Part shown: positions 4,797 through 36,672 of the stretch, piece by piece
Position numbering within the stretch: position 1 is the first letter of the stretch
Layout: the number at the start of each line of letters is the position of its first letter
Virus record (IMG/VR): IMGVR_UViG_3300010354_000240
Span: 1 to 36,672 of that record
Source: a virus
DNA length: 36,672 bases
Reading direction: 5' to 3' (one strand)
Made by a program: the position numbers and the translations under genes
The notes under the pieces: generated by a model
What the model saw: the letters and a program-made list of their open reading frames with translations, nothing else
Databases searched by the model: none
Told to the model about the DNA's origin: nothing

Positions 4797-7351
4797 ACAC
4801 TTTAATCGAACCTTATAAAACACCATGTCCAGTTGGAGTTAAACTTCCAAAAATTCATATTGAAAAAAAACATTATGATCTTTTGGGATGCTCTTCAGAC
4901 ACAAGCAATTTCAACTTTTTAAGAAAGCTTTGTTTTAAGGGGGTGCAAGAAAAAGGTATTGACCAACTTTCTAATAAACAAGTTTATTATGATAGATTAT
5001 CAATGGAGCTTTCAGTTCTTAATGATCTTGGCTTTATTGATTATATTCTTCTAAATTGGGATATTTTAAATTTCTGTCATGAAACTGGTATTCCTACTGG
5101 TGCTGGACGTGGTTCGGCGGCAGGATCTTTGGTTTTGTATGTAATTGGTGTTACTAATATTGATCCAATTAAATATGATCTGTTTTTTGAAAGATTTGTT
5201 TCTAAAAGTCGTGCCAGAAAAATTGAACATAATGGTGAAACGTTTCTTGATGGATCTCTACTAGCAGACGTTGATAATGATATTAGTTATGATCGCCGCC
5301 AAGAAGTTATTGATTATATCAATCGCAAGTATCAAGGTAGAACTTCAAAAATTCTTACTCTAAATACTCTTAGTAGCAAACTTTGTATTAAAGAGTGTGG
5401 TAAGATAGTTGGAGAAATGTCTGAATCTTCTGTTAATGAAATTAGCGATATGATCCCTAAAAAATTCGGTAAAGTTTTCAAGCTTGAGCAAGCTTATTCA
5501 GAAAACGAAAACTTTAAATCATTTGCAAATAAAAACAAAAAGATTTACCGTATTGCTAAAAAGATTGAGGGGCTTGCGAAAAATACAGGAGTTCATCCAT
5601 CTGGAATTGCAATTAGTTTCTATGAACTAGATGAAATTATGCCAGTTCAAACTACTGGCGAAGATGCTATTGTTTCTGGATATGATATGAATAATGTAGC
5701 AGAATTGACTGTTAAGTTTGATATTCTAGGACTCCGCACTCTTTCTGTTATTCACGATGTTTGCTCTCGTATTGGAGTCAAAGTAAATGATATTGATTGC
5801 GATCATGAATCAATTTATGCTGCTTTGCAAACCCTGCAAGCTCCACAAGGATTATTCCAAATTGAAGCTGATACTAACTTTAGAGTTTGTCAAAAAATTG
5901 CTCCTAAAAATCTAGAACAATTATCTGCTGTTGTTGCAATTGCAAGACCTGGTGCATTGGACTTCATGGATAGGTATGCAGACTATGCTAGAAATGGTCA
6001 GTTCCAATCTGTTCATCCATTTTTTGATGATATCTTGAGTTATACTGGTGGTATTCCTCTTTATCAAGAGCAGTTGATGAAAATGGCTGTTAAGGTTGGC
6101 TTTAGTCTTGATGAATCTGAACAATTGCGCCGAATTGTTGGTAAGAAAAAGGTTGATCAAATGGGCGCTTGGAAACAAAAGATTGAAGATAAAATTAAAG
6201 AGAATAATCTAGATTCTGCTGTTGGAGATGTGCTTTGGAAAGTCGCTGAAGACTCAGCAAACTATTCATTCAATAAATCTCACAGTATTTCTTATGCCTA
6301 TCTTGCGGCTATCACTGTATATCTTAAATTTAATTATCCACAACAATTCTTTTTGAGTCTGCTTAAATACGCTCAATATGAGCCAAACCCTCATGAAGAA
6401 ATCAATAAAATTGTCCAAGAGCTTCCTTATTTTGATATTAAACTACTTCCACCAGATCTGTCAAAATCAGATATTGATTTTAAAATTGAAGATAAAAACA
6501 TTAGATACGGTCTTAATTCAATTAAAGGAGTATCAACAAAGGTTTTAGAATCATTATTAGAGTTTAGAGAACAGAGCTTTGTAAACAAATATGAAGTCTT
6601 CCTAGCTGCAAAGCAAGCTGGATTGAATATTGGCGTTCTATCAGCACTAATACAGGCTGGTGTTCTTGATTCCTTTGTTTCCAAAGATCGTTGCAGGTTA
6701 GTTTTAGAGGCTCAAACATTCAACATACTAACTGATAGAGAAAAACGAAATATGGTTTCGTTGGGGGAAAAATATAATTATGATATTTTGAATACTATAG
6801 CAGACTGTTCAAAACAAGAACTTGTTGGTGATGATAATAAAAGAATCTTCTCCGAAAAGAGATTTAATACATTTAAAACTAAATATCAACCATACAAAGA
6901 AATTTATGAGAAAAATCATAAGCATTTAAAATTTGCCAATTGGTTCTTTGAAACTAAATTGCTTGGTTACAGCTATTCTTATAATGTCAGAGAAATTTTT
7001 AAAAATGAGGTTGAGGGCAGCTTGATTTCTTCAAACGATATCTCTAAGATTGAAGAAAACCAAACAGTTAAATTTGTTGGCACTGTTTCCGATATTATGA
7101 CCAGAACCAGCGCTAATGGCAATAAATATGCAAGAATGGATGTTTATGATGATCTTGGCAAGTTGACCATCTTATTAATGGACTCTGAGCGAGAAGGTAG
7201 ATTGACAAATTACCTAAACTCTGGTAAGATCCTGCCTAAGAAAGACTCGATTGTGATCATTTCTGGCAAAAAGAATAGAGATATCGTTTTCGCTGATAAA
7301 CTCTCTCTTTTAGAAGAAAAGATTTACATGAAGCTCTCAGAAATTAAATAA
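4793..7351 (+). CDS. DNA polymerase III alpha catalytic core (DnaE without PHP)
   Basis: C-family replicative polymerase. The palm is clear: TGAGRGSAAGSLVLYVIG at ~102-119, NIDPIKYDLFFERF, then ADVDNDISYDRR, whose D161 and D163 align with the two DnaE catalytic aspartates. The third is D310 in TVKFDILGLRT. Further DnaE landmarks are TGVHPSGIAI, GLFQIEAD, IARPGALDF, YQEQLMKMA, RRIVGKKKVDQM and SFNKSHSISYAYLA. A helix-hairpin-helix stretch (YGLNSIKGV) and a C-terminal OB-fold (KFVGTVSDIMTRTSANGNKY) follow. No PHP domain precedes the palm; it is encoded two genes upstream. Catalytic residues are intact, so it should be active. The start overlaps the exonuclease stop as ATGA. I did not find an obvious clamp-binding motif. 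Confidence 0.93.
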   Translation: MNTLIEPYKTPCPVGVKLPKIHIEKKHYDLLGCSSDTSNFNFLRKLCFKGVQEKGIDQLSNKQVYYDRLSMELSVLNDLGFIDYILLNWDILNFCHETGIPTGAGRGSAAGSLVLYVIGVTNIDPIKYDLFFERFVSKSRARKIEHNGETFLDGSLLADVDNDISYDRRQEVIDYINRKYQGRTSKILTLNTLSSKLCIKECGKIVGEMSESSVNEISDMIPKKFGKVFKLEQAYSENENFKSFANKNKKIYRIAKKIEGLAKNTGVHPSGIAISFYELDEIMPVQTTGEDAIVSGYDMNNVAELTVKFDILGLRTLSVIHDVCSRIGVKVNDIDCDHESIYAALQTLQAPQGLFQIEADTNFRVCQKIAPKNLEQLSAVVAIARPGALDFMDRYADYARNGQFQSVHPFFDDILSYTGGIPLYQEQLMKMAVKVGFSLDESEQLRRIVGKKKVDQMGAWKQKIEDKIKENNLDSAVGDVLWKVAEDSANYSFNKSHSISYAYLAAITVYLKFNYPQQFFLSLLKYAQYEPNPHEEINKIVQELPYFDIKLLPPDLSKSDIDFKIEDKNIRYGLNSIKGVSTKVLESLLEFREQSFVNKYEVFLAAKQAGLNIGVLSALIQAGVLDSFVSKDRCRLVLEAQTFNILTDREKRNMVSLGEKYNYDILNTIADCSKQELVGDDNKRIFSEKRFNTFKTKYQPYKEIYEKNHKHLKFANWFFETKLLGYSYSYNVREIFKNEVEGSLISSNDISKIEENQTVKFVGTVSDIMTRTSANGNKYARMDVYDDLGKLTILLMDSEREGRLTNYLNSGKILPKKDSIVIISGKKNRDIVFADKLSLLEEKIYMKLSEIK

Positions 7352-7368: not shown

Positions 7369-9771
7369 ATGATGGAAATTGATAGTTTTAACTTGACTCC
7401 AAAAGCAAAATTAGCCCTTAAAGATGCTAAAGAATTTGCTAACCGCAATAATCATTCTTTGATTAATAATTGCCATGTTTTATATGGGTGTTGGAAGAAT
7501 ATAAACTCTTCTTTTATTAATTTTGCTGATTTAATGGGTGTCACTCTCAATACAGAAAAGTTGAGTGAAATTATCTTAAAATTCGCTAAAAAATATACAC
7601 TTTTATTTACGGCAAGCTCTCATAATGATGTTTGGGATAATGAAATTCAAAACGCTATTAAAAAAGCTAAAGAATTTGCAGACGATCATGAGAACTTTTA
7701 TATTGGAATTGAACATCTTTTGTTTGGTGTTTTAGAGTGTAACGAAAAATTTCTTGAATTCCTGCTTAAGAATGATGTTGATTATGAACACCTTAAAGAA
7801 GTTATTCACGAATTTATTGTCGGTAAAACCTCAGAACCACCGCCAGCAGAAAAGGAAGCTACCCAAGTTAAGAAAACTAAAACCAAAGCTATTGAAGCTT
7901 ATTGCACTCTTTTAAATGACTTGGTTCAAAAAGAAGATTATCAGATAATTTCTGGTAGAGATAAAGAAATTAATAATATTACTGAGATTCTTTGTAGGAA
8001 AACCAAAAGTAATTGCTTGCTTCTTGGTGAGCCAGGAACTGGTAAAACGGCAATTGTTGAAGGTCTTGCCCAAAAAATTAATTCAAATGAATGTTCAGAA
8101 GTATTAGCCAATAAAAAAATCTACGCTCTTGATCTTAGCTTAATGATTGCTGGTACTAAATATAGAGGACAGTTTGAAGAAAGGTTTAGCAATTTTCTTG
8201 AAGAAGTTAAAGAATTAAAAGATACTATTATCTTTATTGATGAAATTCATGTGATGGTTGGCGCTGGTAGCTCCGAAGGATCAATGGATGTTGCTAATAT
8301 GTTGAAGCCAGCATTGGCTCGTGGAGATATTCGTTGCATTGGTGCTACTACGTACTCAGAATATAAAAAATTCTTTGAGAAAGATGGTGCTTTGTCTAGG
8401 CGTTTTGATATTATAAAGGTTGAAGAGCCTAACAAAACTCAAGTTTTTGAAATGGTGAAAGCATCAATTGATTCATTTGAAAACTATCATAATGTTGAAT
8501 ACTCTGATGAGCTTATTGATTTAACTATAGATCTTTGCGGCAAGTATCTGCCTAATAAAAGATTTCCAGATAAAGCTTTCGATGTGATTGACCAAACATG
8601 TTCAAAAGTAAAAATTAAAAAAATTAAAAGACCCTCAAAGGCTTTAAAAACCGAAAAAGAATTAAAAGCAATCTTAGATTCTTCAGAAGAAGATTTTTCT
8701 CAAGAAGCTCAAATTCAATGTGCGTTATTGATGGATAAATATACGGCAATTATGCAAGATTGGATGTATAGGGTAGCTAAAACAAAATTCAAGATTACTA
8801 AAGATGATGTTTATGAAGTTATTGCGAATAAAAGCAATGTTAATGTTAATACGATTAAAGAGTCTGCCAACAATACTTTTGCTTCATTCAAAGATAATCT
8901 AAAATCAAAAATCTTTGGTCAGTCAGAAAATATTGATAAAATTTATGATACTTTAGCTTGTGCCAAAGCTGGATTTAATAAATCGAATAGACCTATTGCC
9001 AATTTCTTTTTTGTTGGACCAACAAGTGTTGGTAAGACATTTGCCGCAAAACAAATTGCAAAAGAATTTTTTGGTAATGAATCTAGCATATTGCAGATCA
9101 ATATGAGTGAATATCAAGAACAGAATTCAATTTCTAAACTAATTGGAACTAGCGCTGGTTATGTTGGATTTGAAGAAGGTGGTCTGTTAACGGAGTTTGT
9201 CAGACATAATCCTAACAGCGTTATCTTATTTGATGAAGCTGAAAAATGTCATAGAAGTATCTTAGATCTATTGCTTCAAATTTTAGATGAAGGTTGTATC
9301 AATGATAATCTTAATCGAAAGATTGATTTTACCAGCTGCGTTATAATTCTAACTAGTAATATTGGGGTTAAAGAGTCTGAAACAAAATCAATGGGCTTCA
9401 TTCAGCCAGAAATCAATCATACTAATTCTTATAAAGAGTCTGTAAGAAAACAACTACGCCCAGAACTTGTTGCTAGAATTGATGAAATTATTGTTTTCAA
9501 CTCTTTGGGTAATATGGAATTTGCAAAAATAGTCAATGAACGAATTGATCAAATTAAAAATAATTTAAAATCTAAAGAAATTAAAATATCAGTTTCTAAA
9601 GACTGTATTGACTATATTGTCAGCAAGTTGAGTAGTGATTTCAATGCTAGATCTTTAAATTCAATTATTCGCTCAGAGATTGAAGTTCCAATTGCAGATT
9701 TAATTATTAAAAAATCAGATTTGAAGAAAATTTCAATAAAAGTTGTTGACAAGTTAATTAAAGTGTGCTAA
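7369..9771 (+). CDS. ClpC/ClpA-like double-ring AAA+ unfoldase
   Basis: Hsp100 unfoldase that threads proteins into a partner protease. The N-terminus (~1-140) holds two Clp-N type repeats (LTPKAKLALKDAKEFA and EIQNAIKKAKEFADDHENFYIGIEHLL). AAA1 has Walker A GEPGTGKT at 220-227 and Walker B FIDE ending D291-E292. A short M-domain-like helical insert lies near 420-470. AAA2 has Walker A GPTSVGKT at 550-557 and Walker B FDEAEK at D622-E623. Residues M675-G676-F677, in ETKSMGFIQPE, align with the ClpP-docking loop (IGL in ClpA, VGF in ClpC), which ClpB lacks. No clpP lies in the window, so it may use the host protease. It follows the polymerase by 17 bp. The ATG at 7369 is followed by a second in-frame ATG and has no ribosome-binding site. 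Confidence 0.92.
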   Translation: MMEIDSFNLTPKAKLALKDAKEFANRNNHSLINNCHVLYGCWKNINSSFINFADLMGVTLNTEKLSEIILKFAKKYTLLFTASSHNDVWDNEIQNAIKKAKEFADDHENFYIGIEHLLFGVLECNEKFLEFLLKNDVDYEHLKEVIHEFIVGKTSEPPPAEKEATQVKKTKTKAIEAYCTLLNDLVQKEDYQIISGRDKEINNITEILCRKTKSNCLLLGEPGTGKTAIVEGLAQKINSNECSEVLANKKIYALDLSLMIAGTKYRGQFEERFSNFLEEVKELKDTIIFIDEIHVMVGAGSSEGSMDVANMLKPALARGDIRCIGATTYSEYKKFFEKDGALSRRFDIIKVEEPNKTQVFEMVKASIDSFENYHNVEYSDELIDLTIDLCGKYLPNKRFPDKAFDVIDQTCSKVKIKKIKRPSKALKTEKELKAILDSSEEDFSQEAQIQCALLMDKYTAIMQDWMYRVAKTKFKITKDDVYEVIANKSNVNVNTIKESANNTFASFKDNLKSKIFGQSENIDKIYDTLACAKAGFNKSNRPIANFFFVGPTSVGKTFAAKQIAKEFFGNESSILQINMSEYQEQNSISKLIGTSAGYVGFEEGGLLTEFVRHNPNSVILFDEAEKCHRSILDLLLQILDEGCINDNLNRKIDFTSCVIILTSNIGVKESETKSMGFIQPEINHTNSYKESVRKQLRPELVARIDEIIVFNSLGNMEFAKIVNERIDQIKNNLKSKEIKISVSKDCIDYIVSKLSSDFNARSLNSIIRSEIEVPIADLIIKKSDLKKISIKVVDKLIKVC

Positions 9772-10020: not shown

Positions 10021-10055
10021 AAAAACCCCAGCTGAAAAGCTGGGGTTTTTCTTTT
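10021..10055. terminator. Strong bidirectional intrinsic terminator
   Basis: AAAAACCCCAGCT, a GAAA tetraloop, then AGCTGGGGTTTTT form a perfect hairpin (10021-10050) followed by a T-run. The A-run on the left makes it work on both strands. It ends the 71-residue gene on the plus strand and the converging tail-fibre operon on the minus strand. Confidence 0.95.
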
Positions 10056-10303
10056 TATAGATATGTATGACTTTTTAATTGAGCGTTAGATGCTCTATCA
10101 TATGTGCCGTCACCCCAAAATATCATAGACTTATAATTGCTTTGAGAAAAAGTTAAAGTAATTGAAACTATTGATGGCATTTCATCAAATGTCCAAAAAC
10201 CTGTTGTTGGAATTGGTGGCCAAATATATTCATCCCCCAAATATACATATTTGGCAAATTCATTGCCAATTTTAATTTCATCTGCATTATTTAAAATACT
10301 CAT
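10055..10303 (-). CDS. Small tail-fibre-associated protein with PKD-like strand
   Basis: 82 residues, last gene of the minus-strand tail-fibre operon. The C-terminus contains MIFWGDGTYDRASNAQLKSH and then Thr-Tyr, recalling the WGDGT...HTY signature of PKD/immunoglobulin-like beta-sandwich repeats of surface proteins. In such domains more strands usually follow the HTY, whereas this protein stops two residues after it, next to the terminator. It may therefore be a truncated domain or a short tip or accessory protein. The ATG at 10303 overlaps the stop of the preceding gene as ATGA. No signal peptide or membrane segment is visible. Function is inferred only from position. Confidence 0.6.
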   Translation of the reverse strand: MSILNNADEIKIGNEFAKYVYLGDEYIWPPIPTTGFWTFDEMPSIVSITLTFSQSNYKSMIFWGDGTYDRASNAQLKSHTYL

Positions 10304-36055: not shown

Positions 36056-36083
36056 TTGACAAAAACACAAATTTGATTAAAAT
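36056..36083 (+). promoter_or_regulatory. Sigma-70 promoter for the structured RNA / tRNA region
   Basis: Perfect TTGACA at 36056-36061, 16 nt, then TAAAAT (5 of 6) at 36078-36083. The predicted start, about 36090, falls directly before the first stem of the structured region. No reading frame follows, so the transcript is non-coding. Confidence 0.7.
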
Positions 36084-36089
36084 AAAAAT

Positions 36090-36303
36090 TGAAGGTAGTA
36101 AACGCCAGAAGTTACTAAGGTCCGAAAGGGAGATTGGGTTGAGATAAACCCACTAATTAGAAAGTTTTATATACTTTTCCTTTAGAGGGGTTAAAGGGCT
36201 TCATGCCCTGTATCAATATGTAAATGATTTGCAAAAAACCTGCATGTGCGGGTGAGTAATGAAATGTATATTGATCGCCTCTCTAATAGGCATCAATTTT
36301 CAT
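36090..36303 (+). ncRNA. Highly structured non-coding RNA, 5' part, upstream of tRNAs
   Basis: No plausible reading frame. Perfect or near-perfect helices are visible: TAGTAA 36096-36101 with TTACTA 36112-36117; a GAAA-capped stem at 36121-36130; TGGGTT 36135-36140 with AACCCA 36147-36152; GAAAGT 36160-36165 with ACTTTT 36173-36178; an outer 9-bp stem TTAGAGGGG 36182-36190 with CCTCTCTAA 36278-36286. The outer stem encloses hairpin AGGGC/GCCCT (36195-36209) and an 8-bp stem ATCAATAT 36212-36219 with ATATTGAT 36268-36275, which itself holds hairpin CCTGC/GCGGG (36239-36252). This is a nested multi-branch fold behind its own promoter. It is not rRNA, tmRNA or RNase P as far as I can tell. Large phage RNAs of the GOLLD/ROOL kind lie next to tRNAs, so it may be related to them. 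Confidence 0.65.
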
Positions 36304-36389
36304 GGGTAGATACCCAAGTGGCTAAAGGGGGCAGACTGTAAATCTGCTGATGTATGTCTACGTTGGTTCGAATCCAACTCTGCCCACCA
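36304..36389 (+). tRNA. tRNA-Tyr (GUA anticodon)
   Basis: 86-nt class II tRNA with 7-bp acceptor stem GGGTAGA/TCTGCCC (one G-T pair), anticodon stem GCAGA/TCTGC around loop CTGTAAA (anticodon GTA), a long variable arm typical of bacterial tRNA-Tyr, T-loop TTCGAAT, discriminator A and encoded CCA. It lies immediately after the structured RNA domain. Confidence 0.95.
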
Positions 36390-36394
36390 TTTTC

Positions 36395-36468
36395 GCGGGA
36401 TTTGTATAATGGTAATACGCCATCCTTCCAAGTTGGAGTCATCAGTTCGATTCTGATATCCCGCACCA
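36395..36468 (+). tRNA. tRNA-Gly (UCC anticodon)
   Basis: 74-nt cloverleaf with acceptor GCGGGAT/ATCCCGC, D-stem GTAT/ATAC, anticodon loop CTTCCAA (anticodon TCC), T-arm ATCAG/CTGAT around TTCGATT, discriminator A and encoded CCA. The anticodon stem CCATC/GTTGG contains one T-T mismatch. It begins 5 bp after tRNA-Tyr. It reads GGA/GGG glycine codons, which the fibre and lectin genes use. Confidence 0.93.
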
Positions 36469-36672
36469 ATTTTTCCCTGCCATTGTAGGCTGAGATCCTG
36501 CAATGAGCGAGTTGACAGAGAGCGGGTTAGCAACCCGATGATGTCAAACGTAATCCGACACAAATTAAAGTAGGCTTGGAGTCGCTACCAAGATGAAATA
36601 GTCACTGTGTTTCTTCAAATTGATCAAAGCTGCGCTTGGTTAATTAATCGGTAGTGGGGAATATTCGTATCA
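36469..36672 (+). ncRNA. Structured non-coding region continuing past the tRNAs and off the window
   Basis: No reading frame is supported. Helices include the 9-bp stem CATTGTAGG 36481-36489 with CCTGCAATG 36497-36505; an outer stem TTGACA 36512-36517 with TGTCAA 36542-36547 that encloses CGGGTT 36523-36528 with AACCCG 36532-36537; and CTTGG 36575-36579 with CCAAG 36588-36592. The density of long, mostly Watson-Crick stems in otherwise AT-rich DNA argues for a functional RNA. It may be the 3' continuation of the RNA that begins at 36090, with the two tRNAs embedded, or a separate RNA. The right edge cuts it. No terminator is visible before the end. Confidence 0.55.

What the first reader, a model, noticed from the sequence alone, without database searches (positions are those of the whole stretch)
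36056..36672. Large structured non-coding RNA with its own promoter, enclosing two tRNAs
A TTGACA-16-TAAAAT promoter points at a ~600-nt region with no reading frame but many long helices on both sides of tRNA-Tyr and tRNA-Gly, including a nested three-way junction closed by a 9-bp stem (36182-36190 with 36278-36286). The start falls exactly before the first helix. Known large ornate phage RNAs (GOLLD, ROOL) are often found next to tRNA genes, and some are reported to contain tRNAs. I saw no signature that assigns this RNA to either class, so it may be a diverged member or a new class. It runs off the right edge.
Basis: partly seen in the sequence, partly recalled or inferred. Interest (0 to 1): 0.82.

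Follow-up and report, generated by a model that had tools for sequence, protein, structure and literature searches.

The report
New RNA cassettes in phage tRNA array
What looked like one giant phage RNA wrapped around two tRNAs is instead the start of a phage tRNA gene array that carries three separate structured RNAs of unknown function, none matching a known RNA family, and one of them turns up in many uncultured phages.

Summary
The "one large RNA enclosing the tRNAs" reading is not supported. Related uncultured phage contigs show three independent cassettes: (1) a 75-nt leader (36090-36164; pseudoknot plus two hairpins) always between the promoter and the first tRNA; (2) a three-way-junction RNA (36174-36297, "M2"); (3) a ~195-nt multibranched RNA (36469-36663, "C-RNA") directly behind a tRNA. 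Relatives carry them in different subsets, orders and distances; in one contig leader and C-RNA are 3.8 kb apart with 21 tRNAs between. All three are supported by paired substitutions (C-RNA 29 of 48 pairs, M2 11 of 38, leader 5 of 15). None matches Rfam 15, including GOLLD and ROOL, and no cultured phage matched by blastn. A pattern scan plus covariance model extends M2 to about 33 divergent variants, many near phage tRNAs. Best mechanism: a tRNA-operon transcript whose leader acts in cis on RNA polymerase (put-like antitermination, inferred) and from which M2 and C-RNA are processed as stable trans-acting RNAs. That they are conserved RNA cassettes is shown; function is inferred.

The parts
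36056..36083 (+). sigma-70-like promoter TTGACA-16-TAAAAT of the array
   Evidence: a similar promoter lies 9-13 nt in front of the leader in L007, L010, L024, L028, L034
36090..36164 (+). Leader RNA element (model R2): pseudoknot S1 36094-36096/36104-36106 with S2 36097-36101/36112-36116, hairpin 36121-36123/36129-36131 with conserved flanks, hairpin 36135-36138/36149-36152, then conserved ACTAA
   Evidence: 75 nt, found in the window and 10 further viral contigs, always before the first tRNA of the array; 5 of 15 pairs with two-sided changes
36174..36297 (+). M2 RNA (model R3): three-way-junction RNA; P1 encloses hairpin GGGCUUCAUGCCC and a long third arm
   Evidence: covariation in 7 close relatives and a wider family of about 33 variants; not in Rfam
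36304..36389 (+). tRNA-Tyr (GTA)
36395..36468 (+). tRNA-Gly (TCC)
36469..36663 (+). C-RNA (model R1): multibranched RNA; P1 UUUCCC/GGGGAA, P2 hairpin, P3 two-part arm, P4 CCGACACA/UGUG..UCGG enclosing P5, optional hairpin P6
   Evidence: one copy in 22 of 26 related contigs; 29 of 48 pairs with two-sided changes; starts 0-3 nt behind a tRNA in window, L005, L008, L011

Best explanation
The region is the promoter-proximal end of a tRNA operon of a large uncultured tailed phage. The operon is an array of RNA genes in which, beside tRNAs, there are three independent structured RNA cassettes. Shown: the leader is a conserved RNA element at the very 5' end of the predicted transcript; M2 and C-RNA are conserved structured RNAs that come and go between tRNAs like any other gene of the array. 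Inferred: the array is transcribed from the leader promoter as a long untranslated precursor; the leader folds on the nascent RNA and modifies RNA polymerase in cis so that it reads through the hairpin-rich, untranslated array (put-like processive antitermination; about 0.35 for this step); M2 and C-RNA are cut out by the enzymes that release the tRNAs and persist as stable RNAs that act in trans, probably by binding a protein, the ribosome or the tRNA machinery through their conserved junctions and loops (about 0.6 for trans action, target unknown).
For: Independence of modules: (leader only in L010; leader and C-RNA 3.8 kb and 21 tRNAs apart in L007/L033; C-RNA only in L005; M2 only in L015; leader + C-RNA without M2 in L028; M2 + C-RNA without detected leader in L016, L017). 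Covariation: C-RNA 29/48 pairs, 75 cells against 18.2 in shuffles, none of 500 shuffles as high, slid controls 8-12 pairs; M2 26 cells against 8.9 and slid controls 1-4 or 0; leader 11 cells against 4.2. Wide M2 family: P1 pairs in 25-33 of 33 variants at each of 12 positions and falls to 17, 14, 10 beyond. Packing: C-RNA begins 0-3 nt behind tRNA-Gly in window, L008, L011 and behind tRNA-Lys in L005; in L030 a tRNA-Ala follows within 2 nt. Several M2 copies lie behind the same CCAATTT spacer that follows tRNAs. Leader: predicted +1 lies 2-6 nt before its first helix in all types; one true copy per contig, extra hits AT-rich and spurious; a terminator-like site just upstream of the promoter in L007.
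Against: No expression data: transcript ends, processing and abundance are unknown. Array-internal promoter-like sites in L007 (16 found against 7.9 in shuffles) argue against one sole transcript, and intrinsic terminators inside the arrays are not enriched, so a need for antitermination is not shown. Leader covariation rests on 7 sequences and few pairs, and the number of pairs with two-sided change is weak against shuffles (37 of 500 reach it). Model R2 gives nothing significant in HK022 (best E 0.22).
Confidence: 0.8

Rival explanations
1. One large ornate RNA, a diverged GOLLD/ROOL or a new giant class, with tRNAs held in a linker.
For: Long structured stretch next to and around tRNAs; GOLLD linkers sometimes contain tRNAs (PMC12286853); in the window and L003 the modules are close together.
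Against: Modules occur alone, reordered, or kilobases apart; no Rfam match other than tRNA-related ones at E up to 5 in the window, and no GOLLD or ROOL match at E up to 1 in L003; each module closes its own helix; no conserved pairing across the tRNAs was seen.
Confidence: 0.06
2. M2 is a small self-cleaving ribozyme that helps cut the array precursor.
For: Three-way junction with a conserved unpaired core and variable arms, often beside tRNAs; junction letters change together in two subtypes (G.A and A-U inside P1 in one, G-C and U.G in the other).
Against: No match to ribozyme models in Rfam; flanks that M2 shares with tRNAs suggest ordinary processing; cleavage cannot be tested here.
Confidence: 0.12
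3. Leader, M2 and C-RNA are only passive processing or stability elements (5' pseudoknot and spacers) without own function in trans.
For: Leader is at the extreme 5' end; modules tile the untranslated array.
Against: M2 and C-RNA conserve letters in loops and junctions (C-RNA AAUCCGAC and CACU; M2 UYCAU loop and junction) beyond what a passive stem needs, and M2 also lies in contigs without tRNAs nearby. The M2 loop was partly fixed by the search pattern, so its invariance is shown only within the pattern.
Confidence: 0.2
4. The stretch is intron or decayed gene sequence.
For: Group I introns do occur in other M2-bearing arrays, and HNH genes lie in and beside arrays.
Against: No intron match in window or L003, intact tRNAs, compensatory changes.
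Confidence: 0.01

Closest known systems
GOLLD and ROOL large ornate RNAs
   Same: Structured non-coding RNAs of phages near tRNA genes; GOLLD linkers may hold tRNAs (PMC12286853)
   Different: Much smaller, three independent modules, no match to their covariance models
T4 stable RNAs rnaC and rnaD in the tRNA cluster
   Same: Small stable RNAs of 119-139 nt inside a phage tRNA cluster, next to tRNAs
   Different: No match of models R1, R2 or R3 in the T4 region; T4 rnaC ends in a tRNA-like T arm, these do not
HK022 putL RNA (processive antitermination)
   Same: About 70 nt, just downstream of the promoter, two stem-loops plus an extra strand interaction at the 5' end (PMC9378689)
   Different: No significant sequence/structure match in HK022; here it precedes a tRNA array, not early protein genes
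~430-nt structured RNA and tmRNA in mycobacterial and mycobacteriophage tRNA arrays
   Same: Other non-coding RNAs within tRNA arrays (PMC5966550)
   Different: Different size; no Rfam match here

Membership tests
GOLLD (Rfam) | Match to the family covariance model | tested here: not met
   only tRNA matches plus sub-threshold noise
[quoted passage not shown]
   modules are independent and reordered in relatives
ROOL (Rfam) | Match to the family covariance model | tested here: not met
tmRNA / OLE / group I intron | Match to covariance model or ARAGORN tmRNA | tested here: not met
T4 rnaC / rnaD | Sequence-structure relationship | tested here: not met
   R1, R2 and R3 give no significant match in L037
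T4 rnaC / rnaD | Stable RNA processed from the tRNA precursor | not testable with these tools
   needs RNA data
HK022 put antiterminator | ~70-nt structured RNA immediately downstream of a promoter (as putL) | tested here: met
HK022 put antiterminator | Sequence-structure similarity to put | tested here: inconclusive
   model R2 best E 0.22 in HK022; small model of 7 sequences, and put sites are not annotated in the record
HK022 put antiterminator | Suppresses termination in cis through the RNA polymerase zinc-binding domain | not testable with these tools
   needs a transcription assay

The most novel reading that the evidence does not exclude
M2 is a new, widespread class of phage RNA (62-124 nt; three-way junction with a GGCUYCAUGCC hairpin) that acts in trans on the host's translation or RNA machinery, carried by many uncultured phages, often among their tRNA genes; together with C-RNA and the leader it shows that phage tRNA arrays are general RNA-gene operons with their own polymerase-modifying leader.
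Probability: 0.3. Interest if true: 0.85.

Novelty: new variant of a known kind. Interest (0 to 1): 0.64.

Why it matters
Phage tRNA arrays are usually read as tRNA stores. Here they carry at least three further RNA families that are under structural selection, absent from Rfam, and not found in cultured phages by the searches made. M2 in particular is conserved across very different phages, which points to a common target. The leader makes a testable link between RNA-based antitermination and tRNA operons in phages.

Tried and rejected
One giant RNA: rejected by module independence. GOLLD/ROOL/OLE/tmRNA/intron: no model match. Homology to T4 rnaC/rnaD: the shared GGGUCGCUACC hairpin in T4 rnaD and C-RNA P5 looked suggestive, but model R1 gives no match in T4; treated as chance. 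Searches of cultured phages with window, L003 and L007 DNA and three M2 members gave nothing beyond tRNAs. Extra R2 hits in L055-L058 inspected and rejected as chance matches. R3 in 198 genomes of the phylum of MAG contig L149: none, but no positive control, so uninformative. L141 passes the M2 pattern but lies inside a 763-aa frame of high GC and was left out. Genome scan hits L150 and L151 for C-RNA are not supported by R1. The M2 loop resembles an initiator-tRNA anticodon arm (GGG stem, CAU); no test was found, so it is not claimed.

Full report
What is there. The window is a whole 36.7-kb IMG/VR contig. The finding covers its right end, behind a thymidylate synthase gene and an HNH endonuclease gene. 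A promoter with 11 of 12 consensus letters lies at 36056-36083, tRNA-Tyr and tRNA-Gly at 36304-36389 and 36395-36468. No reading frame of note is present. The stretch folds better than shuffled sequence.

Relatives. The HNH protein brought in 14 related contigs, nearly all with tRNA arrays behind it. Blast of the region showed that its parts are conserved piecewise. Exact patterns from the conserved letters found further contigs, up to 174 kb long in the C-RNA set. Cultured phages have no close relative: the DNA polymerase is below 30% identity to its best listed matches and the HNH protein about 30%.

Three modules. (1) Leader, 36090-36164: seven types align almost without gaps. S1 and S2 form an H-type pseudoknot: S1 is GGU-GCC in the window, GGU-ACC in L003, GGC-GCC in L007; S2 and the last hairpin also change on both sides (UGGG/CCCA, UAGG/CCUA, UGAG/CUCA). 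In all cases a promoter precedes it by a few bases and the first tRNA of the array follows. (3) C-RNA, 36469-36663: covariance model R1 gives one copy in each of 22 of 26 contigs, with E-values from 6e-53 to 2.5e-16; 29 of 48 pairs have changes on both sides and none of 500 shuffles reaches any of the five measures. Arm P3 keeps pairing although its letters are wholly different between groups (TTGACA/TGTCAA, GCTATATTA/TAATATAGT, TCTTTGG/CCAAGGA). P6 is present or absent.

One RNA or several. The modules behave like separate genes. L010 has the leader only. L007/L033 has the leader before the first tRNA and C-RNA 3.8 kb further on, behind 21 tRNAs. L005 has C-RNA only, L015 M2 only, L028 leader and C-RNA without M2; L016, L017, L026 and L031 have M2 between tRNA-Glu or tRNA-Gln and tRNA-Met. 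C-RNA directly abuts tRNA-Gly in the window, L008 and L011, but follows tRNA-Lys, Trp, Phe or Asp elsewhere. This argues strongly against one folded RNA that encloses the tRNAs. Contigs are fragments, so a single absence is weak; the reorderings and distances are the stronger evidence.

M2 beyond this group. A pattern made from the M2 hairpin found 78 stretches; R3 matches 53 entries at E up to 1, and the weaker ones are not safe by score alone because the search pattern itself contributes. A further test was therefore made: for each, the best partner for the 12 letters in front of the junction was sought downstream. 17 of 48 distinct variants had all 12 pairs, against 0.14% in a null of random downstream sequence of the same composition. 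About 33 variants pass; P1 pairs at 12 positions with several pair types each and stops there. The choice of best partner favours pairing, which the null allows for; the last two P1 letters and most of the hairpin were set by the pattern. The letters just inside P1 change together (G.A with A-U in one subtype, G-C with U.G in the other), a sign of a structured junction. About half of the further contigs have tRNAs within 1.5 kb, some directly abutting; others have M2 between protein genes. No Rfam match at E up to 1 was found at M2 in eight of the contigs that carry the wide family, and blastn found none in 50,697 phage records, although blastn is weak for such short divergent RNAs.

Mechanism. 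Shown: conserved structures, their order and their setting. Inferred: transcription from the leader promoter, release of M2 and C-RNA with the tRNAs, and trans action. For the leader the best analogue is HK022 putL: about 70 nt, immediately downstream of a promoter, two stem-loops with an extra strand interaction at the 5' end, acting on RNA polymerase over at least 10 kb (PMC9378689). A long untranslated array is a natural client, but terminators inside arrays are not enriched and internal promoter-like sites exist, so this step is held at about 0.35. For M2 and C-RNA, trans action as stable RNAs is held at about 0.6, with no target named.

Limits. No RNA data exist here. E-values of the models are rough because calibration was shortened. 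R3 and R2 rest on seven sequences each. Relatedness of sequences inflates covariation counts, which is why slid controls and the wide-family test were used. Absence from cultured phages rests on blastn only.

Noticed in passing
L004:7052-7816: A ~760-nt stretch sits between tRNA-Gly and C-RNA, carrying a short M2-type RNA and coding-like sequence; bases around the tRNA-Gly 3' end (window 36459-36476) match on both sides of it, as at an insertion behind a tRNA 3' end.
   Followed up: partly
L003:5716-5784 and 5790-5890: Directly behind C-RNA lie a degenerate tRNA-like element (Rfam tRNA 25.6 bits, below threshold) and a further conserved module ending in GCTATGGGCAAAT or similar, in several relatives such as L005, L016, L022, L028.
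   Followed up: partly
L008 about 10030-10200, L011 about 8290-8460: Behind a tRNA-Phe-like sequence a further small conserved element, TTCGGGAAAGACCCGAA then CATCAGG-loop-CCTGATG whose loop CGGTC could pair with a downstream GACCG, looks like another pseudoknotted array RNA.
   Followed up: no
L149:1064-1223: C-RNA behind tRNA-Gly in a 4.7-kb contig binned as an uncultured Cytophagaceae bacterium, with a ribonucleotide-reductase-like gene; probably a binned phage contig, a weak hint at a Bacteroidota host.
   Followed up: partly
L002:3300-3950: A stretch of other sequence with coding-like antisense content interrupts what looks like the start of a tRNA behind the array's conserved tail, where L003 has tRNA-Asn.
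   Followed up: no
L121:1225-1440, L117:605-810, L118:1-412: Two M2-bearing arrays carry group I intron matches (one just under the gathering score) and one a tmRNA match.
   Followed up: no
L100, L119, L120, L148 upstream of M2: M2 follows within 8-16 nt an ORF in contigs without a tRNA next to it; in L119 and L120 it is a small acidic protein (about 55 aa, with GEDPEEIL..EFGLEPD).
   Followed up: no
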